A stretch of 64,000 bases of DNA from Listeria grayi DSM 20601 (lineage in GTDB: Bacteria > Bacillota > Bacilli > Lactobacillales > Listeriaceae): NCBI RefSeq assembly GCF_000148995.1, contig NZ_GL538352.1, positions 806,001-870,000 on the forward strand, read 5' to 3'. The position numbers and the translations under genes are program-made. Below the pieces are notes generated by a model. That model was not told where the DNA came from, searched no databases, and saw nothing but the letters and a program-made list of their open reading frames with translations. Positions within the stretch are counted from its first letter, which is position 1; every line of letters starts with the position of its first letter. This document shows, in pieces, positions 45,226 through 64,000 of the stretch.

Positions 45226-45279
45226 TACTTTTTTATAAAAACGGCTAACCCTTTGATAGAGAAGCGGTCAGTCAGTTCA

Positions 45280-45329
45280 AAAAGGAAAGCTTATTGTAAA
45301 ATAAAAACACAATAAGCTTTCCTTTTTGT
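45280..45329 (+). terminator. terminator after thiT
   Basis: AAAAAGGAAAGCTTATTGT / ACAATAAGCTTTCCTTTTT, a very long perfect stem. A tracts on the 5' side may let it act on both strands. Confidence 0.9.
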
Positions 45330-52574: not shown

Positions 52575-53498
52575 ATGGATATGAAAAAATTTGCGGAAAT
52601 GCTACAATCGAAATTTCCTTTAATGCCTTTGAAAGAGAAGGAATCATTGGCTAAATATAGTTATACAAAAACAGGTGGACAAGCAGATCTTTTTGCGATG
52701 CCGCGTGATATGGAAGAAGCAAAAGCATTGATTGCCTTGATCGATCAGCATGATGTCCCGCTTACTGTCATCGGCAATGGCTCTAACCTTGTTATTCGAG
52801 ATGGAGGCATCAGAGGGATCGTGGTTCATTTTGACTTGCTTTCTTCTATCAAAAGAGAAGGGACAAAGGTCATTGCCGGTAGTGGTGCGAAAATCATTGC
52901 TGTATCGGAATTTGCCTGCAATGAGAGTCTCAGCGGCCTAGAATTTGCCTGTGGGATCCCTGGTTCAGTCGGCGGAGCACTTTATATGAATGCTGGGGCA
53001 TACGGCGGCGAGATCAGTCAAGTTTTAGTGGAAGCAACGGTGCTTGATCAATCTGGGAACCTGCTTCATTTGGAGAAAGAGGACTTGACGGCGAGTTATC
53101 GGAACAGTACGATCGCGAATAAAAATTATATAGTTTTGGAAGCTGTTTTCCAGCTGGAGCTTGCCGAAATGGCTGTCATTCGGGCACAAATGGACGAATT
53201 AACGGCACTGCGTGAAGCCAAGCAACCGCTAGAATATCCATCGTGTGGAAGCGTCTTTAAGCGGCCACCTGGTTATTTTGCCGGGAAATTGATTCAAGAT
53301 GCCGGCTTGCAAGGCTTGCAAATCGGCGGAGCGCAAGTTTCCGAAAAGCATGCTGGTTTCATCGTGAACGTAGACCATGCGACCGCCACAGATTATATGG
53401 ATGTCATTCATCACGTTCAAAAAGTAATAAAAGAAAAATTTGACGTTATTTTAGAAACGGAAGTTAAAATCATCGGAGAAGAGAGGCCAAATGAGTGA
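52575..53498 (+). CDS. murB: UDP-N-acetylenolpyruvoylglucosamine reductase MurB
   Basis: A 307-residue FAD enzyme that completes UDP-MurNAc synthesis. The FAD-binding motif TVIGNGSNLVIRDGG, the GIPGSVGGALYMNAGAYGGE loop and the catalytic PSCGSVFKRP (Ser in the proton-donor position) plus LIQDAGLQGLQIGGA are complete. TACAAT at 52523-52528 is a likely -10. The stop overlaps the next gene. An ATG two codons downstream is an alternative start. Confidence 0.96.
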   Translation: MDMKKFAEMLQSKFPLMPLKEKESLAKYSYTKTGGQADLFAMPRDMEEAKALIALIDQHDVPLTVIGNGSNLVIRDGGIRGIVVHFDLLSSIKREGTKVIAGSGAKIIAVSEFACNESLSGLEFACGIPGSVGGALYMNAGAYGGEISQVLVEATVLDQSGNLLHLEKEDLTASYRNSTIANKNYIVLEAVFQLELAEMAVIRAQMDELTALREAKQPLEYPSCGSVFKRPPGYFAGKLIQDAGLQGLQIGGAQVSEKHAGFIVNVDHATATDYMDVIHHVQKVIKEKFDVILETEVKIIGEERPNE

Positions 53499-54526
53499 AT
53501 GATTTAATTCGATTTGTGAAGCAGAAAAGTGTTACACGTGTTTTAGTGTTTTTACTATTAGTATTCGTGCTCTATCTAGTTAGGAGCATGATTGATATTA
53601 TTTTGATGACCTTTATTTTCTCTTATTTGATCACGCGGTTAGAAAACTTTATTTTAAAGCGCGTGTCGATCTACAGACCGATCATCGTTATTATTTTGTA
53701 TGCACTGATCGTTGTGTGTCTGACGTTGCTGCTTGTCAAATATGTTCCGATCATCATTGAACAACTGAATCAGCTGATTAAATTCGGGAATGCTTTCTTT
53801 ACAACTAAAAGTAATAACCAAATCATTGATTACATCGTAAAAATGGGGAATGATTTCAATATCACCAAATATACAGATAAAGGTTTTACATTCCTGCTCA
53901 GTTCGCTGAAAAGCACGGGAACGGTAATGATGAACATTTTTATCGCACTGATGTTGAGCCTGTTCTTTTCACTTGGCAGAGAACACCTATTAGTATTCAC
54001 AAAACAATTTGAAACGAGCAAGATCGCTTTTATTTATGAAGAAATGAAATTCTTTGGCGTGAAATTTGTACGGACGTTTGGAAAAGTCATCGAAGCACAA
54101 TTTTTGATCGCATTAGTCAACTGTGTGCTGACAACGATCGTCTTATGGTTCCTTCACTTCCCGCAACTGCTTACACTATCGATCATGATCTTCTTACTCG
54201 GATTGATACCTGTCGCCGGCGTAGTTTTATCATTGATCCCGCTTTCAATCGTTGGGTTTTCGATCGGTGGTATCAAATATATTATTTATGTGATTATTTT
54301 GATCGTGGTGATCCACGCGATCGAATCGTATATCCTTAACCCAAAATTGATGTCGGCAAAGACAAACCTGCCTGTATTTTATACGTTCATCATTTTGATT
54401 TTCGGTGAACATTTCTTTGGGATATGGGGATTGATTGTCGGCATCCCTGTGGTAATGTTCTTCTTAGATGTTTTAGAAGTGACAGGGCAGGAAGGAAAGC
54501 TTGGTGGAAATAAAAAAATGACTTAG
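53495..54526 (+). CDS. AI-2E family transporter-like permease
   Basis: A 343-residue membrane protein of the AI-2E (UPF0118/PerM) family with about seven to eight helices. Family marks are the central amphipathic loop (GREHLLVFTKQFETSK) and the LIPVAGVVLSLIPLS and HAIESYILNPKLM regions. Members are linked to ion or small-molecule efflux; the substrate is unknown. It starts with GTG overlapping the murB stop by 4 bases, so it is coupled to murB. Confidence 0.85.
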   Translation: MNDLIRFVKQKSVTRVLVFLLLVFVLYLVRSMIDIILMTFIFSYLITRLENFILKRVSIYRPIIVIILYALIVVCLTLLLVKYVPIIIEQLNQLIKFGNAFFTTKSNNQIIDYIVKMGNDFNITKYTDKGFTFLLSSLKSTGTVMMNIFIALMLSLFFSLGREHLLVFTKQFETSKIAFIYEEMKFFGVKFVRTFGKVIEAQFLIALVNCVLTTIVLWFLHFPQLLTLSIMIFLLGLIPVAGVVLSLIPLSIVGFSIGGIKYIIYVIILIVVIHAIESYILNPKLMSAKTNLPVFYTFIILIFGEHFFGIWGLIVGIPVVMFFLDVLEVTGQEGKLGGNKKMT

Positions 54527-54547
54527 GACATCCCTAAGTCATTTTTC
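54514..54547 (+). terminator. terminator overlapping the end of the AI-2E gene
   Basis: AAAAAATGACTTAGG-ACAT-CCCTAAGTCATTTTT. The 5' arm includes the last codons and the stop. Confidence 0.92.
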
Positions 54548-54569
54548 ATACAGAAAAGGAGGCTACGTC

Positions 54570-55022
54570 ATGCTGACGTTACAACAAATGTCCAGAGAAG
54601 AATATACGAATTACCTATCAAATGCGGTTATTGATTATGCGGCTGATAAAATAACAGCTGGAACTTGGACGAAAGACGAGGCAATTGGATTAGCAAACGA
54701 TGCATTTGCTGATTTATTACCTCAAGGAATCGATACACCTAACGAGTATTTATATACGATCCACCGCTCCAATATTCCAATTGGTCACATATGGCTACAT
54801 TACAAAGACCAAGCAGCATTTATCTATGACTTCTTGATTTTCGCCGATTATCGAAACAAAGGATACGGTTCAGAAGCCATGACCTGCCTAGAACAAAGAG
54901 CTAAACAGATAGGTGCGGTGAAGCTATCCCTACATGTTTTTGCGCATAATAAGCAGGCGGTTCATGTTTATGAAAAAGCTGGCTTTCAGTATACGGATCA
55001 TACAATGGCAAAAAATATTTAG
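54570..55022 (+). CDS. GNAT family N-acetyltransferase
   Basis: A 150-residue acetyltransferase. The acetyl-CoA motif A is IFADYRNKGYGSEAM (R/Q-x-x-G-x-G/A type: NKGYGS), and motif B is VFAHNKQAVHVYEKAGFQY. An N-terminal region of about 60 residues precedes the core. AAAGGAGGC precedes the ATG. The substrate is unknown. It lies convergent to the flavin reductase gene. Confidence 0.86.
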   Translation: MLTLQQMSREEYTNYLSNAVIDYAADKITAGTWTKDEAIGLANDAFADLLPQGIDTPNEYLYTIHRSNIPIGHIWLHYKDQAAFIYDFLIFADYRNKGYGSEAMTCLEQRAKQIGAVKLSLHVFAHNKQAVHVYEKAGFQYTDHTMAKNI

Positions 55023-55029
55023 AAACCAG

Positions 55030-55623
55030 CTACTTGTTATATCGAAAATTATAACCAAGCAAGGTGTCAGCAGCTTTGTAAGCTCTGAATTGATAGATCA
55101 GCGGCGACCAAGCCTCGCTATTGATTTGGCCGTTTTGATCTAGAATGGATTCAGCAGCTAGGACCTGCGAGATAGAAAGTTCGACAATCGCGAACTGCTC
55201 TCTCTCCGTTATATTTTCGATATCCGCAGCTATTTGTAGCGGGCACTCAGCAATTGCCGGTACAGCTGTATCAGGAATATGTTTAGGCGAGAAGCCACTT
55301 GTTGCAAATTTGTCGGCATCATAGGTATAGCCCATTTTTTGTTTATACGCCGGCACTTCAAGCATTCCTGTCTTTTGGGCGATTTTTTCGACCTCGTTCC
55401 ACTGATGACTTGCCGGCACATTGATTACTGCCTGCGATCCGGCCTGAATATTACGGAAACCTTGGCTTTGCTGGGCGATCCCGATAACGATCTTATCGAT
55501 CAGCGTCCACGAAGAAGACAAAGGGGTGATATTGGCTACGCCGGTAATTGGATCAATGGTCGTTAGTAAAAGGACCGGAAAACCATAGTATAGACTGTTT
55601 GCTTTTACTGCTTGATGTTTCAT
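55030..55623 (-). CDS. flavin reductase family protein
   Basis: A 197-residue FMN-binding split-barrel protein of the flavin reductase/DIM6-NTAB type (PVLLLTTIDPITGVANITPLSSSWTL; INVPASHQW). The start is the ATG with GTGAGGATG upstream; the five extra residues to 55638 are unlikely. It diverges from the ArsR-type gene across an 81-base gap with an inverted repeat, suggesting the regulator controls it. The substrate is unknown. Confidence 0.84.
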   Translation of the reverse strand: MKHQAVKANSLYYGFPVLLLTTIDPITGVANITPLSSSWTLIDKIVIGIAQQSQGFRNIQAGSQAVINVPASHQWNEVEKIAQKTGMLEVPAYKQKMGYTYDADKFATSGFSPKHIPDTAVPAIAECPLQIAADIENITEREQFAIVELSISQVLAAESILDQNGQINSEAWSPLIYQFRAYKAADTLLGYNFRYNK

Positions 55624-55668
55624 AACTATCATCCTCACTTTCTAACTCAACCATATCATCTCAATGAA

Positions 55669-55682
55669 TCGATGCACATCGA
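55669..55682. promoter_or_regulatory. inverted repeat between flavin reductase and ArsR-type genes
   Basis: TCGATG-CA-CATCGA with perfect six-base arms in the divergent promoter region. It is a candidate operator for the adjacent ArsR-family regulator. Confidence 0.45.
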
Positions 55683-55704
55683 AGTGTCAAAAGGAGGGCT
55701 TTTT

Positions 55705-56373
55705 TTGGAAATCAAAGAGGCAGATCTTTATGCTGTTACTAGATTATTAAATGATCAAACTCGAATCGCGATTTTGGAAATACTTATGGACGGTCGTTTC
55801 CATACCGTCAGTGAATTAGCTAAATACTGCAAAGTAAAAACCAACACTGCAAGCTTTCATATGACAAAGCTACTGGAAATAGGTTGGCTGGAAACCCATA
55901 AGCAGGGGAGATATCGTTATTATCGGCTAGTGGATGAGCAGTTGGCTGGTCTATTGGAGCAGCTCCTTATCTTAGCTCCTGTAAAAAAACATACGACTTT
56001 GATGAAAAGTTTGGAAATGGAGCGGCTGATAGAAGCGCGGACTTGCTATAATCATCTCGCGGGAAAGTTAGGAGTAGCGCTACTGAAGTATCTATGCGAG
56101 CAGCAACTGATTTCCCGTCAAAAAGGACATTTAATAGTTACCGAAAAAGGCCTGTTGTTTTTCCGCAACTGGGGGATCGAGGTGGAAAAACTGCAGGATC
56201 CGCTATGTAAAGATTGCTTAGACTGGACGGAAAGAGATTTCCACCTCGCTGGAAAACTTGGCAATGCAATATATCAGACGTTTCGAGATAATGGCTGGAT
56301 CGAAAGTCACCCAACAGATCGCTCTGTTACGCTCTCAGTTAAGGGTAGAAACAGGCTCCCATTTTTAATATAA
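55705..56373 (+). CDS. ArsR-family transcriptional regulator with C-terminal extension
   Basis: A 222-residue protein. Residues about 8-85 form an ArsR/GntR-like winged helix (LLNDQTRIAILEILMDG, CKVKTNTASFHMTKLLEIGW, GRYRYYRLVDEQ). The second half is an extra domain with a second helical repeat and a Cys pair (CKDCLDW), possibly a sensor. No classical metal ELCVCDL box is seen. TTG 55705 is chosen because AAGGAGGG lies at ideal distance; the frame continues to 55612 within the divergent gene's start. Confidence 0.8.
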   Translation: MEIKEADLYAVTRLLNDQTRIAILEILMDGRFHTVSELAKYCKVKTNTASFHMTKLLEIGWLETHKQGRYRYYRLVDEQLAGLLEQLLILAPVKKHTTLMKSLEMERLIEARTCYNHLAGKLGVALLKYLCEQQLISRQKGHLIVTEKGLLFFRNWGIEVEKLQDPLCKDCLDWTERDFHLAGKLGNAIYQTFRDNGWIESHPTDRSVTLSVKGRNRLPFLI

Positions 56374-56403
56374 AAAAGAGACGCATGGTGCGCCTCTTTT
56401 TAT
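56372..56403. terminator. convergent terminator
   Basis: AAAAAGAGACGCATGGTGCGCCTCTTTTT, a stem with A and T tracts on both sides, between the ArsR-type and bglA genes. Confidence 0.88.
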
Positions 56404-56404
56404 T

Positions 56405-57826
<1,422 letters not shown>

Positions 57827-57852
57827 CTACTTCTCTAGCAATTTTCTAGTTA

Positions 57853-57881
57853 AATATAGCACTAGGGTTCCCCACTGTAAA
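57853..57881 (-). promoter_or_regulatory. SigA promoter of bglA
   Basis: On the minus strand TTTACA (57881-57876), 17 bases, TATATT (57858-57853). Confidence 0.75.
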
Positions 57882-57889
57882 CGCTTTTC
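57876..57889. promoter_or_regulatory. CRE site (CcpA) over the bglA -35 box
   Basis: TGTAAACGCTTTTC matches the CRE consensus TGWAANCGNTNWCA at all but the last position. It contains the bglA -35 hexamer, so CcpA bound here should block transcription when preferred sugars are present. Confidence 0.75.
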
Positions 57890-57896
57890 CGACAAG

Positions 57897-57912
57897 TTGA
57901 AACATGTTTCAA
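57897..57912. promoter_or_regulatory. 16-base perfect palindrome upstream of the bglA promoter
   Basis: TTGAAACATGTTTCAA is a perfect palindrome centred about 23 bases upstream of the bglA -35. It suits a dimeric activator or repressor, which I cannot name. Confidence 0.5.
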
Positions 57913-58025
57913 ACATTAGGAATAAAGCCATTCGATTCTGTTTCTATCTGATTGGTCTTAAACAATGAAAAAAGGGTATATGGAGAATGAAAAGTTATTT
58001 TAGTAATGGGAAAGGGTGGGGGAAG

Positions 58026-58463
58026 ATGTCTCTTTATAAACGTATCTTAGTTGGTGTTGACGGGTCTAATGAAGCAGAAGCAGCTTTCAGACGCGCGGTA
58101 CAATTTGTCAAAGCAGAAGAGGATGCTGTACTGGGAATTGGTTTTGTTGCAGATGTTCGCAGAATAGCCCCGTTGATCGATTATGAACAAACATATGCAA
58201 AGAAAGCAAAGGCATACGGCGAAGAGTTGGTAGAGATCTATAAGCAAGAAGCACTTCGCTTTGGCGTCCAACATATCGAAACCTTCGTCCATTTTGGAAC
58301 CCCTAAATCCACATTAGTCCGTAAAATATTAAAAAATTTCCAAGCCGATCTGATCGTTGTAGGAGCTACTGGATTAACGCAGACCGAACAGGCTCTTTTA
58401 GGAAGTGTCACGGATTATGTTACCCGAACCGCCCAGTGCGATGTCTTTATCGTCAAAAAATGA
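58026..58463 (+). CDS. universal stress protein (UspA family)
   Basis: A 145-residue single-domain Usp. The N-terminal strand YKRILVGVDGSNEAEAAF and the ATP-binding pattern VVGATGLTQTEQALLGSVTDYV (G-2x-G-9x-G-S/T type) are present. The ATG after GGGTGGGGGAAG is chosen over 57987, which lacks a good ribosome-binding site. It is divergent from bglA and followed by its own terminator. Confidence 0.9.
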   Translation: MSLYKRILVGVDGSNEAEAAFRRAVQFVKAEEDAVLGIGFVADVRRIAPLIDYEQTYAKKAKAYGEELVEIYKQEALRFGVQHIETFVHFGTPKSTLVRKILKNFQADLIVVGATGLTQTEQALLGSVTDYVTRTAQCDVFIVKK

Positions 58464-58478
58464 TACGAATGTTACCAA

Positions 58479-58511
58479 CAGCGTTTCCTAATGAAACGCT
58501 GTTTTTTTGTA
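58479..58511 (+). terminator. terminator after the universal stress protein gene
   Basis: AACAGCGTTTC-CTAAT-GAAACGCTGTTTTTTT. Confidence 0.93.
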
Positions 58512-58530
58512 TGTAAATATAAAAAGCTGT

Positions 58531-58559
58531 TTGACAACATACAACTCGAATGATAGTAT
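58531..58559 (+). promoter_or_regulatory. SigA promoter of gbuABC
   Basis: TTGACA (58531-58536), 17 bases, TAGTAT (58554-58559). The leader of about 65 bases contains an imperfect hairpin GAGGCAACTT / AAGTTGTTTC just before the AAAAGGAGGA ribosome-binding site. Confidence 0.8.
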
Positions 58560-58630
58560 TGGATTGTCTGTTTAAGAGGCAACTTGTTGTAAATGAGAAG
58601 TTGTTTCTTTAGAAAAGGAGGATAGCTAAG

Positions 58631-59845
58631 TTGACTAAAATAAAAGTAGAACATCTAACTAAGATTTTCGGCAAACGTAAAAAGCAGGCACTGGAAATGA
58701 TCCAGGCCAAAAAGTCGAAATCAGAAATTTTGAAAGAGACAGGTGCATCCGTTGGTGTATACGATGTCAGCTTTGAAGTGGAAGAGGGAGAAATATTTGT
58801 CATCATGGGACTTTCAGGAAGTGGGAAATCCACGTTGATCCGATTATTGAACCGGTTGATTTTCCCGACAAATGGCCATGTTTTTATTGACAATCAGGAT
58901 ATTTCCTCTGTCAGTAAGAAAGAATTATTGCAGATCCGCAGGCAGAAAATGAGCATGGTCTTCCAGAATTTCGGATTATTCCCGCATCGCACGATTCTGG
59001 AAAACACAGAATTCGGCTTGGAAGCACGTGGCATTGGCAAGAAGGAACGCATCGAGAAAGCAAGAGGAGCTTTGCAAAACTCTGGACTACTGGATTATCA
59101 AAATCAGTACCCGAATCAGCTTTCCGGAGGTATGCAGCAGCGCGTAGGATTGGCAAGAGCGATCGCCAATGATCCGGAAATCCTTTTGATGGATGAAGCT
59201 TTTTCTGCATTGGATCCTTTGATAAGAAGAGAAATGCAGACCGAACTGCTCAACATCCAAGATCAGCTTAAAAAGACGATTATTTTCATCACCCACGATC
59301 TGAACGAAGCATTGCGGATCGGGGACCGAATTGCATTGATGAAAGACGGAGAAATCGTTCAGATCGGGACGGGTGAAGAAATATTGACGAACCCGGCAAA
59401 TGACTATGTCGAAAGTTTTATTGAAGATATTGATAAATCACGTATTTTGACAGCAGAGAACATTATGATTCCAGCAGTGACAATCAATATAGATGTCGAT
59501 GGACCAAGAGTAGCACTCAATCGGATGCGCCAAGAAGAAATCAGTCTATTGATCGCAACAAATGCGAGTAAACAATTAGTAGGCTATATTACTGCCGAAG
59601 ATGCCTACACAGCCAATAAAGAGAAAAAAGAACTTCGCGAATTCCTCAAACAAGATATCCCCACCATTGAAAAAGATATGAAACTCCATGATATTTTCAA
59701 CATCATTCACCAAGTTTCTTCCCCAGTCATTGTTCTGGATGGAGGAAAGATCGCTGGCGTCATTGTTAAAGGAATTGTGATCGAGGCGCTTGCAACAAGC
59801 GAAAATGCAGCAGACAGCGAAGCGCGAAAGGGAGTTGAATCATGA
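58631..59845 (+). CDS. gbuA: Glycine betaine ABC transporter ATPase GbuA
   Basis: A 404-residue OpuAA/ProV-type ATPase. Walker [13 protein letters not shown], signature [15 protein letters not shown] and Walker [13 protein letters not shown] are intact. The N-terminus has the ProV-type extension ([20 protein letters not shown]) and the C-terminus a CBS pair (about residues 275-390) for osmotic or nucleotide sensing. It starts with TTG behind AAAGGAGGA. First gene of gbuABC, which in L. monocytogenes lies elsewhere on the chromosome. Confidence 0.94.
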
Positions 59846-60705
59846 CAACTACATTTGTATTAGGAAAGATCCCTGTCGCTGAATCCGTTGAAAACTTGAC
59901 AGATTGGATGACAACGAACTTCGCATCCTTCTTCGATTTTTTCCAAACGATCGGGCAGGGACTAATGGACAATATTACGTACTTATTGGGATTGATCCCG
60001 CCGCTCGTATTTATTTTGATCCTTGCCGTATTAGCCTTTTTTATTTCTGGTAAAAAAATCGGCTTGACCGCGTTTGTGATTATTGGGCTATTATTTATTC
60101 GTGACCAAGAATTATGGGACGCACTTGTCAATACGATCACCTTAGTAATCGTCTCCAGTTTAGTTGCGATTATTATTGGTGTTCCCGTAGGTGTCTGGAT
60201 GTCGAAGAGCAAGATCGCAGAAAGTATTATCAAACCGATCTTAGACTTTATGCAGACGATGCCGGGATTTGTATACTTGATTCCAGCCGTCGCCTTTTTC
60301 GGCATTGGAGTTGTTCCAGGTGTATTTGCTTCCGTGATCTTCGCATTACCGCCAACTGTGCGCTTTACGAATCTCGGTATTCGGCAAGTGCCGGTTGAAT
60401 TAGTGGAAGCCTCTGACTCTTACGGAACAACAGGATGGCAAAAGCTGATCAAGGTGGAGTTGCCAATCGCGAAATCAACGATCATGGCGGGAATCAATCA
60501 AACCGTCATGCTGGCATTATCGATGGTAGTTATCGCCTCAATGATCGGTGCACCTGGTTTAGGACGACAAGTACTACAGGCATTGCAACGCGCCCAAGTC
60601 GGAAATGGCTTCGTTGCCGGCGTATCACTTGTTATCTTAGCCATCATCATGGATCGCTTCACACAATATTTCAATACACGCAAACGGAAGACAAAAAACC
60701 AATAA
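59842..60705 (+). CDS. gbuB: Glycine betaine permease GbuB
   Basis: A 287-residue OpuAB/ProW-type permease with a long amphipathic N-terminus and about seven helices. The EAA loop is [22 protein letters not shown]. Its ATG overlaps the gbuA stop by 4 bases. Confidence 0.94.
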
Positions 60706-60718
60706 GGAGTTTGTTAAA

Positions 60719-61573
60719 ATGAAGAAAATAAAGTTAGCAGTTAGTTTAGTAGCAGCACTAGTTTTAGTGCTGGCAGGTTGTGGTGCTGGGGGAGCATCCT
60801 CTGACAAGAATAAGAAAATCAATTTATCCTATGTGGAATGGGATACAGAAGTTGCTTCGACACACGTTATTGGTAAAGTACTGGAAGACCAAGGCTATAA
60901 AGTGACGTATACCCCACTGGATAATTCTGTTATGTGGCAATCAGTTGCCAACAAAGAATCTGATGCTATGGTAGCAGCATGGCTTCCCAATACACACGCT
61001 GCACAATACAAGAAGTATAAAAGCAAGGTCGATGATCTAGGGGTCAATCTGAAAGGTGCTAAGATCGGCTTGACCGTTCCCGCATATATGAATGTCGATT
61101 CCATTGAAGATCTGAAAAATCAAGCAAATAAAAAGATCACTGGAATCGAACCAGGCGCTGGGGTCGTGAGCGCTGCTGAAAAAGCAACCAAAGATTACCC
61201 GAACCTAAAAGGCTGGGAGGTTGATACCTCATCTTCAGGCGCAATGACCGTTTCATTAGCAAAAGCACTGAAAAACAAACAAGATATCGTTATCACTGGC
61301 TGGTCACCACACTGGATGTTCGCTAAGTATAAACTGAAATATTTAGAAGATCCGAAGAAAAGCTTTGGCGATGCTGAATCGATTCATACCATGGCAAGAC
61401 AAGGTTTGAAAAAAGACGATCCAAAAGCATATAAGATCCTAGATAAATTCAACTGGTCCAAACAAGATATCGAAGACGTCATGCTTGAGATCAATGATGG
61501 TAAAGATCCAAAAGATGCCGCAGCTGATTGGGTCAAGAAACATAAAAAAGAAGTTTCGGAATGGACAAAATAA
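60719..61573 (+). CDS. gbuC: Glycine betaine-binding lipoprotein GbuC
   Basis: A 284-residue lipoprotein with lipobox LAGC (Cys at about residue 21) and an OpuAC domain. Aromatic-cage residues for the quaternary ammonium are visible in SYVEWDTE, MVAAWLPNTHA and TGWSPHWMF. It captures glycine betaine outside the membrane for GbuB/GbuA. A terminator follows. Confidence 0.94.
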   Translation: MKKIKLAVSLVAALVLVLAGCGAGGASSDKNKKINLSYVEWDTEVASTHVIGKVLEDQGYKVTYTPLDNSVMWQSVANKESDAMVAAWLPNTHAAQYKKYKSKVDDLGVNLKGAKIGLTVPAYMNVDSIEDLKNQANKKITGIEPGAGVVSAAEKATKDYPNLKGWEVDTSSSGAMTVSLAKALKNKQDIVITGWSPHWMFAKYKLKYLEDPKKSFGDAESIHTMARQGLKKDDPKAYKILDKFNWSKQDIEDVMLEINDGKDPKDAAADWVKKHKKEVSEWTK

Positions 61574-61625: not shown

Positions 61626-61724
61626 GGTAAGAGGGGCTATCTTTACTATTTAACTAGCGAAACTCCCTTATTTCCGCTATCATATGTATATATATATTCA
61701 ATTTCTAGTGGGGAGGAAATTGCA

Positions 61725-64000
61725 ATGAAAGAGACAATAACGGTAAAAAAAGGCGGTTTCTTAAATAAATATCGCACCATCCAACAAGGAATCAATGATG
61801 TGGATGAGGGCGGGACTGTCTATATTGAAAGTGGTGTTTATCAAGAAAGAATAATCTTGGACGGAAAAAATGTGACCTTGGTTGGTCAAGGAAATGTAAC
61901 CGTCACAGGAGAAATAGATTATCCGCTGATCACAACCATTGATACAACACTTTCGTTAAAAGGACTTACGTTTATCCAAAAAGGACACACAAACGCAGTA
62001 TATATAAAAGAAAACTCTAAGGTCAAGATCGATTCATGTACAATCGAAGGTGAGGATCACAAAGACGTCAAAACAACTTATCCAGCGCTATGGGTAGGGC
62101 TGGATAAGTTGTTTTTATTCAAGATTCAACACTGATCGGACATACTTCGAACAGCATTCATCTGCAAGAATCGACGATGCAACTAGAAAACTGCACCATC
62201 AAAGGCTTTGGTATCTATGTCTATCAAAAAGCTAAGCTGACCACAAATGGTCTGAAAATAAGTCATCCCAGCAGTTATGGCGTGTTTGCAAAAGAAGGGC
62301 ATTTCGAGATGCGTGACACTAGAATGACAGGCGGCGGTGTAGCAGCGATCCTGGAAGACGGTAAAGGGGCAATTCATGGGATCACGACCAATCACACTTA
62401 TCGCGATGTTTTTCGCGTCGATCATAGTGAATTGACAGTGACCGATGCTGACATCCAACATTTTTGCGAGATCAAGGATGTCGATGAAAAGGCAAATTAT
62501 CCAGCCGTGTTTGTGAAAAACAATTCCACTGTCACTCTTGAAAAAGTGAATATCCACGATTCTAAGCTAGATGCTATCCAAGTATATCAATCCAGATTAA
62601 AAATAAGTGATAGCCAGATCTCTAACGTATATATGGGGATTTTCATTCGCGAACAAGCCAAAGTCACCCTGGATAAGGTACATATTTCTCAAACTGTTTT
62701 TAACGCCCTGAGCATCGCTGGTAATGCAGAAGTAACTGTCAAAGACTCTCATTTTGATGAATGTGTCATTGGAAAACATGATAAAAACTATCCGGTCGTG
62801 ATTATGCGCGAGCAAGGAAGTTTGCATGTAGAAGGGACGACCATCAGTAATTCCGCGAATGATGCTATTTATATGGCTGAACTTCAAAATGCCGTATTGA
62901 AAGACATGACGATCGATGCCACAGACGTCGGTATCTATGTAGAAAAAACACCGCTCTCCGTTGAAAATATCACCATCAAAAATTGCTTGAAAAACGCGGC
63001 ATTCTTTGTGCAAAGCCCCGTTACTATTACTAACAGCCACATCGAAAGCAACAATCTGCTCAGCAAGCCAGAATATGAACTAGATTCCGAGATCCCTAAG
63101 AGAGTAGATGCGTCGGTTTCCATTATCAATGCTCGAGTTTCCGCGACGAATCTCACTATCAGCGACAAGACGGCATCGATCTCCCTGCAAAAACAAAGCC
63201 GTTTCCAAGGAAACTCCCTTAGACTATCCGGCGGTGTTTTTAATATGGAAAGCGATTTCCAAGCCGAACACCTTATGTTTATCAATTTGGAAAAAGAACC
63301 GATCCATTTTAAATTGTTGCTACATGCAACCGCCAATGTTCAATTCGATAACCCAAATGATTCGATTTCCTATGTTAAAGATCTGACTAGTAAATTGGAA
63401 AGCAACTTGCTAAAGCCGGCACATGCGATTGTGCAACATGATTTTACAGCGAATACAAATCCGGCAGTAAAACCAGTGCCGCCACTGCCGGAAACAAATC
63501 CAGCGCCACCAACAGAACTACCACCTCAAGCATCCTATTCGCTGGCAGGGCCAACTGCTTATAAAGAAACAATGCAACGCTTGTTAAAACAGGCCTCCCT
63601 TTATCAAGTCCGCCTTAGTCAGGGAATAACGCTACCACATAACTGGTCCATGCTTTGGATTGAAAAAGGAATCACGGATGTCATCGATTATGTAGCACAA
63701 ACAAAACAAGCATTTTACGAGTCTAACCTCATTTCCGAAGATAATACTTATCGCTTATCTGAAACCGATCCCTCTCTTTATCTAGAGACCGCAAAAAATG
63801 GCTTACTTTGGATCGACCAGCTTGAAAAGGTTTGGAGCGATACAGCCTTTCTAACAGAAATCACTCGTATCGTGGAAGAAAGAGCGATTATTTTCACCGG
63901 GACAGAAGAAGAAGTACATGCGCTTGCCCAAAACGCTCCCGAACTATACGCAAAAATTGGACATCAAGTGATTTTCGATGATTTTACAGCAACGGACACA
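61725..64000 (+). pseudogene. frameshifted beta-helix protein with degenerate AAA+ domain, incomplete
   Basis: An ATG behind GGGGAGGAAA opens a frame that stops at 62135 after 136 codons. A second frame, open from 62108 to the window end (about 630 codons), continues the same protein. One extra T in the T5 run at 62112-62116 would join them. There is no signal peptide. The N-terminus resembles pectinesterase-like beta-helices (YRTIQQGINDVDEGGTVYIE), followed by about 500 residues of repeating coils (for example YPAVFVKNNSTVTLEKVNIH). A Pro-rich linker lies at about 63461-63530. The last 155 residues follow the CbxX/EccA-type AAA+ pattern (GLLWID for Walker B; NAPELYAKIG), but the Walker A slot reads WIEKGITDVID. 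Pseudogene, phase-variable gene or sequencing error all remain possible. Confidence 0.7.

What the first reader, a model, noticed from the sequence alone, without database searches (positions are those of the whole stretch)
61725..64000. Beta-helix protein fused to an AAA+ domain without a Walker A loop
The two open frames together encode a cytosolic right-handed beta-helix (no signal peptide), a Pro-rich linker and a C-terminal segment that tracks the CbxX/CfqX (EccA/SpoVK-like) AAA+ core step by step: a YKETMQRLL helix, a hydrophobic strand MLWI, then WIEKGITDVID where GNPGTGKTT is expected, FYESNLI, the Walker B-like GLLWID (63800-63817), a sensor-like IIFTGTEEE, and NAPELYAKIG (63932-63961). 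ATP binding seems lost while the fold is kept. Beta-helix plus CbxX-type AAA+ architectures are known to me mainly from actinobacterial proteins. A nucleotide-independent version in a Firmicute suggests a scaffold role or an adaptor for a partner ATPase.
Basis: partly seen in the sequence, partly recalled or inferred. Interest (0 to 1): 0.82.

Follow-up and report, generated by a model that had tools for sequence, protein, structure and literature searches.

The report
Broken beta-helix protein with dead ATPase
A bacterial gene for a two-part protein (a beta-helix joined to an ATP-driven chaperone module) in which the recognisable ATP-using motifs are lost, and which is split by a shift of reading frame; it may be one of two separate cases in which this kind of chaperone turned into a protein that does not use ATP.

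Summary
ORF1 (61725-62135) and ORF2 (62177-64249, past the window end) encode a beta-helix, a Pro-rich linker and a complete but degenerate CbbX/SpoVK/EccA-type AAA+ module. Walker A, catalytic Glu, pore loop, Arg finger and sensor-2 Arg are gone; the model matches AAA+ folds, CbbX second. New: (1) the architecture is not mainly actinobacterial: relatives with canonical Walker A occur in the window's order, and full-length ones on Ligilactobacillus salivarius plasmids. (2) Thermoactinomycetaceae-type proteins have a beta-helix plus one eroded AAA; 0 of 11 keep both Walker motifs. The window's beta-helix scores better with the window-order proteins (52 vs 13 bits), so the loss probably happened twice; the AAA part alone does not decide. 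(3) The ORFs lie in different frames; a 21-nt-arm palindrome sits at the break, its 3' arm apparently copied from the 5' arm. (4) No second CbbX-type protein was found in this genome. Best reading: a former nucleotide-independent scaffold, probably recently broken. The break was not checked against reads or other strains.

The parts
61725..62135 (+). ORF1: N-terminal part of the beta-helix; ends at a stop after the frame break
   Evidence: SD-like GGGGAGGA at 61710-61717 read directly
62070..62115 (.). Inverted repeat, 21-nt arms, 4-nt loop, at the frame break
   Evidence: 95% complementary; z -7.0; 20 matched pairs, joint best in the window; ten Markov sequences gave maxima of 10-12; against the second coil the 5' arm matches 15 of 21, the 3' arm 10 of 21; against the third coil both 10 of 21
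62177..64000 (+). ORF2: rest of the beta-helix, linker, degenerate AAA+; continues to 64249 outside the window
   Evidence: 0 stops in 690 codons
62177..63400 (+). Right-handed beta-helix coils (end approximate)
   Evidence: Pfam PF13229 6.2e-23; HMM of window-order proteins 52.2 bits
63464..63529 (+). Pro-rich linker
   Evidence: sequence read directly
63530..64000 (+). Degenerate CbbX-type AAA+ core; the rest and the lid lie in 64001-64249 beyond the window
63662..63688 (+). EKGITDVID at the place of Walker A GNPGTGKTT
   Evidence: alignments
63800..63820 (+). GLLWIDQ at the place of Walker B GGVLFIDE (Glu to Gln)
63887..63913 (+). IIFTGTEEE at the place of sensor 1 IIFAGYTKE (GY signature lost)
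   Evidence: signature as described in PMC10659427 (passages read)
63932..63961 (+). NAPELYAKIG at the place of the Arg-finger stretch NPGLRSRIP (finger Arg to Lys)

Best explanation
This is the broken gene of a cytosolic beta-helix/CbbX-type protein that had already become a pseudo-ATPase. Inferred history: a beta-helix-CbbX chaperone of the kind found in the window's order (beta-helix binds a client, the AAA+ ring remodels it with ATP) lost its nucleotide-handling motifs while the beta-helix and the AAA+ fold were kept, so that it could serve as a nucleotide-independent binding or ring/scaffold protein. Later a foldback (template-switch) mutation in one beta-helix coil wrote a palindrome and put the rest of the gene out of frame. 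Shown: architecture, homology, motif loss, frame break as sequenced, palindrome. Inferred: order of events, former scaffold role, loss of function today.
For: AAA+ homology well above shuffles and by BLASTP to L005 domain 1 (E=8e-10) and L060 (3e-7). The six PDB matches at E<=0.001 are all AAA+, CbbX second. The catalytic features are changed in one collinear alignment. The beta-helix goes with window-order proteins (52.2 vs 13.3 bits), whose AAA domains have canonical Walker A (of the 17 non-own loci, 16 show two GNPGTGKT and L021, without a beta-helix in what I read, shows one). Coding was kept: 0 stops in 690 codons, about 4e-19 by base composition, although the AAA branch is very long (6.9). 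Precedent for a pseudo-AAA behind a beta-helix: 11 Thermoactinomycetaceae-type proteins, 0 of 11 with both Walker motifs, 11 of 11 with Pfam Beta_helix; in the three named genomes the downstream ATP-grasp and TypA-like neighbours are shared, and the upstream secDF-recJ-apt in two (the third contig ends there). Palindrome.
Against: No relative was found in the 24 other genomes of the genus held, and none by the close-relative scans of genome contigs and IMG/VR or by tblastn of plasmids and phages, so selection on this gene cannot be measured directly. The AAA part does not say which group it came from (38.7 vs 37.6 vs 30.5 bits). In the tree it is a long unplaced branch, and by path and identity its nearest row is a Thermoactinomycetaceae one (L076, 22% identity), which is against two separate losses. 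Model confidence is modest (pLDDT 69, four alignment rows; four other models 48.7-60.7). The 5' arm is no more like the third coil than the 3' arm is (10 of 21 each). No assay, expression or read data.
Confidence: 0.55

Rival explanations
1. Plain decay: the whole gene has been under relaxed selection; the lost ATPase motifs are part of the rot and the protein never had a nucleotide-independent job.
For: Frame break; no Shine-Dalgarno seen before the ORF2 ATG (read); no match in the other 24 genus genomes held; very long AAA branch.
Against: A branch that long under neutrality should have left stops; none in 690 codons. Codon-position GC of ORF2 resembles most of the five neighbouring genes measured. 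Hydrophobic pattern and core topology kept.
Confidence: 0.23
2. The frame break is an assembly error (or is bypassed in translation), and the cell makes a whole beta-helix/pseudo-AAA protein that works today as a scaffold.
For: The frames are open but for one spot; hairpins can mislead sequencing and assembly (general knowledge); good SD-like site before ORF1.
Against: The 3' arm is an inverse copy of the 5' arm, the mark described for quasipalindrome template switching (listing and start of abstract seen for PMC7202029 and PMC3820800). No classical slippery heptamer was seen by eye in the overlap.
Confidence: 0.18
3. Adaptor subunit that joins a ring of an active CbbX/EccA partner in the same cell.
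For: Mixed active/inactive AAA+ subunits exist elsewhere (general knowledge).
Against: TIGR02880 finds only this gene in the genome at E<=0.001; an active relative used as query finds, besides it, weaker matches in frames that look like Clp and FtsH (identified by length, place and one partial reading); neighbours are unrelated.
Confidence: 0.04

Closest known systems
Beta-helix + CbbX/SpoVK-type AAA+ proteins of the window's order (L097 657 aa and L102 665 aa, one AAA; L080 836 aa and L005 962 aa, two AAA) and Ligilactobacillus salivarius plasmids (e.g. NC_007930.1, 'AAA family ATPase')
   Same: N-terminal beta-helix with a [YFW]P coil motif (5 of 6 proteins), linker, C-terminal CbbX-type AAA+ with lid. 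The plasmid proteins match L097 over its whole length at 36-42% identity; their motifs were not read
   Different: The order's proteins have canonical Walker A and B, some in two AAA domains; the window copy has one AAA without the catalytic motifs, and a frame break
   Same: Same architecture, AAA+ eroded: Walker A K-T/S in 1 of 11, Walker B D-E in 1 of 11, both in 0 of 11. The L074 module model best matches CbbX 3syk, E=6.5e-14
   Different: Longer beta-helix of another type (13.3 vs 52.2 bits for the window); erosion milder; each has one long open frame, although flags one stop inside the matched stretch of L087 and of L088, not resolved
CbbX, SpoVK and EccA (dedicated chaperones; PMC10659427, passages read)
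   Same: AAA+ core and lid by homology and fold
   Different: These are ATPases with GY sensor 1, Asn before the Arg finger and sensor-2 Arg; all lost here. PMC10659427 mentions a beta-helix among the N-terminal domains of EccA-type members

Membership tests
SpoVK-CbbX-EccA clade of AAA+ ATPases | AAA+ core and CbbX-type lid by sequence | tested here: met
   TIGR02880 4.1e-6 and AAA_lid_6 0.021, both below curated cut-offs; group HMMs 30-39 bits vs at most 7.7 for shuffles
SpoVK-CbbX-EccA clade of AAA+ ATPases | Walker A GxxxxGK[T/S] | tested here: not met
   EKGITDVID in its place; no GxxxxGK in the ORF2 frame
SpoVK-CbbX-EccA clade of AAA+ ATPases | Walker B with catalytic Glu | tested here: not met
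   Asp kept, Glu to Gln (LLWIDQ)
SpoVK-CbbX-EccA clade of AAA+ ATPases | GY in sensor 1, Asn before the first Arg finger, sensor-2 Arg (as given in PMC10659427) | tested here: not met
   GT, Ala and Gly at the aligned places, and Lys for the finger Arg
SpoVK-CbbX-EccA clade of AAA+ ATPases | ATP-dependent ring that remodels a dedicated client | not testable with these tools
   needs biochemistry; motif loss argues against ATP use
Right-handed beta-helix proteins (PF13229) | Pfam gathering score reached | tested here: met
   ORF2 81.6 bits vs cut-off 25.9
Beta-helix-CbbX architecture of the window's order | Beta-helix of the same type | tested here: met
   52.2 bits with the group HMM of 6 proteins vs 13.3 for the HMM of 11 Thermoactinomycetaceae-type proteins; no shuffle control was run for this pair
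Type VII secretion (EccA/EssC) locus | WXG100/EssC neighbours | tested here: not met
   neighbours in L003 do not look like T7SS by eye; WXG100 genes lie elsewhere; EssC not searched

The most novel reading that the evidence does not exclude
Beta-helix-CbbX chaperones have turned at least twice, independently, into nucleotide-independent proteins that keep the AAA+ fold: once in Thermoactinomycetaceae, where the motifs are lost to different degrees in different genera while the gene is kept, and once in the window's lineage. This would make an unannotated class of bacterial AAA+ pseudo-ATPases in which the ring is a static scaffold for a beta-helix client-binding module.
Probability: 0.4. Interest if true: 0.62.

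Novelty: new variant of a known kind. Interest (0 to 1): 0.42.

Why it matters
Bacterial AAA+ pseudo-ATPases are few as far as I recall. A family in which the Walker motifs range from partly kept to wholly lost beside a constant beta-helix would let one test directly what an AAA+ module does when it can no longer use ATP. Pfam calls a beta-helix in 11 of 11 Thermoactinomycetaceae-type proteins scanned but AAA over its cut-off in only 1 of 11 (L087), so the class is easy to overlook; NCBIfam does show sub-cut-off CbbX/SpoVK/EccA matches in the 4 of them that I scanned.

Tried and rejected
Programmed frameshift: the overlap was read by eye, no classical slippery heptamer, and the stem lies upstream of most of the shift zone; not pursued. 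Mobile element at the break: (DNA search of the own genome) shows the palindrome matching only itself; my pattern had a wrong spacing and found nothing, so it tests nothing. Terminator inside the gene: the consensus scan did not list it. Ortholog search: genus (E<=10), genome contigs (14 pattern matches, none confirmed), IMG/VR (39), plasmids, phages: none; the two contig scans reach close relatives only. Synteny in the genus through the GbuC-like protein: one match at E<=1e-60 in 24 other genomes, 47% identical, on a 105-kb contig; no such gene among the ORFs of 150 aa or more in the 16 kb fetched around it. Placing the AAA domain by tree failed (long branch; nearest by path a Thermoactinomycetaceae row) and by group HMM was undecided; only the beta-helix gave a lean. 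Second CbbX-type protein in the genome: none found. HMM of window-order proteins in the genus: the own gene (by its beta-helix only) and two weak AAA hits in 866- and 868-codon frames of two genomes, not read. phmmer of the C-terminal part against the PDB: nothing at E<=10. Organism name: attempts through plasmid and phage records gave only weak leads. Literature; no paper on beta-helix pseudo-AAA appeared in these listings.

Full report
What is there. The window is G000:C1:806001-870000. I fetched the stretch beyond 64000 (L003; window position = L003 position + 59999). ORF1 61725-62135 and ORF2 62177-64249 are adjacent and in different frames. ORF1 has a strong SD-like site and no signal peptide by eye; ORF2 has no SD before its first ATG that I could see. 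The gene stands after a GbuC-like gene and before an SDR and a MerR-type regulator (names by eye).

Domains. Pfam gives Beta_helix on ORF2 (6.2e-23) and only a weak AAA_lid_6; NCBIfam gives CbbX 4.1e-6 and SpoVK 1e-4 on the last 246 aa, far below the cut-offs. phmmer against the PDB found nothing at E<=10. BLASTP pairs: L005 domain 1 E=8e-10, L060 E=3e-7. Group HMMs, best domain: 38.7 (window order, 10 domains), 37.6 (tandem proteins of other families, 8 domains), 30.5 (Thermoactinomycetaceae type, 10 proteins); best of 1000 shuffles 6.1, 7.7, 6.0. AlphaFold2 of the in-window part (163 aa, four rows) gave pLDDT 69.0 and pTM 0.70; the other four models were weaker (60.7 to 48.7). Foldseek: six PDB matches at E<=0.001, all AAA+ (HDA 4.7e-4, CbbX 5.0e-4, Sec18, Mpa, ORC, ClpB), with query TM-scores of 0.34 to 0.54.

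Lost motifs. In the alignment the window has EKGITDVID for Walker A, IDQ for IDE, a gap where the GQTA pore loop lies, GT for GY, Ala for the Asn before the Arg finger, Lys for the finger Arg, and AGW for GRW at sensor 2. These are the nucleotide-handling features I could name; others were not tested.

Relatives in the order. In 395 genomes, 18 matched including the own one. Of the 17 other loci, 16 show two GNPGTGKT and one (L021) shows one. I read the beta-helix in L005, L006 and L008; L007 was cut by its locus end, L009-L020 were not read singly, and L021 has no beta-helix in what I read. L097 and L102 have a beta-helix and one canonical AAA.

Relatives outside it. In 398 class genomes 23 matched including own; among the 14 new loci, L060 and L061 showed the beta-helix plus one eroded AAA. 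A contig scan named the first Thermoflavimicrobium dichotomicum and added T. daqui and a Thermoactinomycetaceae MAG. All three share downstream ATP-grasp and TypA-like genes; secDF, recJ and apt-like genes lie upstream in two, and the third contig ends there (names by eye). With L075 that makes 11 proteins. Walker A K-T/S: 1 of 11 (L092); K without T/S: 7 of 11; no K: 3 of 11 (L086, L090, L091). Walker B D-E: 1 of 11 (L088). Both: 0 of 11. Pfam finds Beta_helix in 11 of 11 and AAA over its cut-off in 1 of 11, L087. flags one stop inside the matched stretch of L087 and of L088, though each has a single long ORF; I did not resolve this. The L074 module modelled with pLDDT 71.8, pTM 0.59, and its four best PDB matches are all CbbX, E 6.5e-14 to 1.2e-12; one of its four alignment rows was the window piece.

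Names. The tool does not name the window's order. I take it for Lactobacillales, near Listeriaceae: the first 20 kb of contig C3 match two Listeria monocytogenes records at 74.6-76.3% over 4% and 27% of the query. Window 52575-61573, however, matched only a Niallia record at 71% over 4%, so this is weak. Among plasmid records, 4 of 268 with a match to L097 cover at least 80% of it, all L. salivarius; I did not read their motifs.

One loss or two. The beta-helix of ORF2 scores 52.2 bits with the window-order HMM (6 proteins) and 13.3 with the Thermoactinomycetaceae HMM (11 proteins). A [YFW]P[APVC] coil motif is in 5 of 6 of the first, in 2 of 11 of the second, and twice in ORF2. Since the window-order proteins have canonical motifs, the window probably lost its ATPase apart from Thermoactinomycetaceae. 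Against this: in the tree (24 rows) the window is a long unplaced branch whose nearest rows by path are L076 and L074, and whose highest identity is 22% to L076, and the AAA HMMs do not separate the groups. So two losses is a lean, not proof.

The frame break. The frame of ORF2 is open from about 62108. At 62070-62115 lies a palindrome with 21-nt arms and a 4-nt loop, 95% complementary; as RNA -29.1 kcal/mol, z -7.0. By matched pairs it is the joint best in the window (20), with one at 45278-45328 that lies between ORFs of 60 aa or more; ten Markov sequences gave maxima of 10-12. Against the second coil the 5' arm matches 15 of 21 positions and the 3' arm 10 of 21; against the third coil both match 10. 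The 5' arm also encodes the family's YPA motif, so the 3' arm is the odd one. This is what template switching between inverted repeats leaves (titles and starts of abstracts seen). It could not be checked against reads. ORF2 has no stop in 690 codons (chance about 4e-19 from base composition), so the break is probably young if real.

How it worked, most likely. For the clade, dedicated chaperones with varied N-terminal client-recruiting domains are described, a beta-helix among them (PMC10659427, passages). A copy without ATP motifs can bind and perhaps oligomerise but not remodel: a scaffold or sequestering protein. This step is inference. A CbbX-type partner is unlikely, since no other was found in the genome.

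Verdict. Observation confirmed, interpretation partly supported. A new variant of a known kind, probably broken in this genome; the wider interest is the possible parallel erosion of an AAA+ module behind a kept beta-helix.

Noticed in passing
L074 265-2628, L075 5701-8070, L076 5710-8070: Thermoactinomycetaceae beta-helix plus eroded AAA+ genes with shared neighbours; Pfam misses the AAA part in 10 of 11 such proteins scanned.
   Followed up: partly
L021 100-1965: 621-aa protein with an N-terminal AAA-like half that by eye lacks a standard Walker A and a second, canonical CbbX-type half.
   Followed up: no
G000:C1:1202271, 282480, 231968; C2:19723 (L117-L120): Four WXG100 genes in the window's genome, three with identical scores; far from this locus.
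   Followed up: no
L039-L042 (G000 C1 three places, C2 one): Four 269-codon AAA frames with identical scores, possibly the helper gene of an insertion sequence (inferred, not read).
   Followed up: no
NC_007930.1 44774-46708 and three other L. salivarius plasmids: Large plasmids carry full-length relatives of the beta-helix-CbbX protein L097, annotated 'AAA family ATPase'.
   Followed up: no
NZ_CP030101.1: 2.9-Mb Listeria monocytogenes record listed in the plasmid collection; by its size probably a chromosome.
   Followed up: no
window 58631-61573: GbuABC-like genes (names by eye); the binding protein has one match at E<=1e-60 (47% identity) among 24 other genomes of the genus, so this species looks unusual in its genus.
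   Followed up: partly
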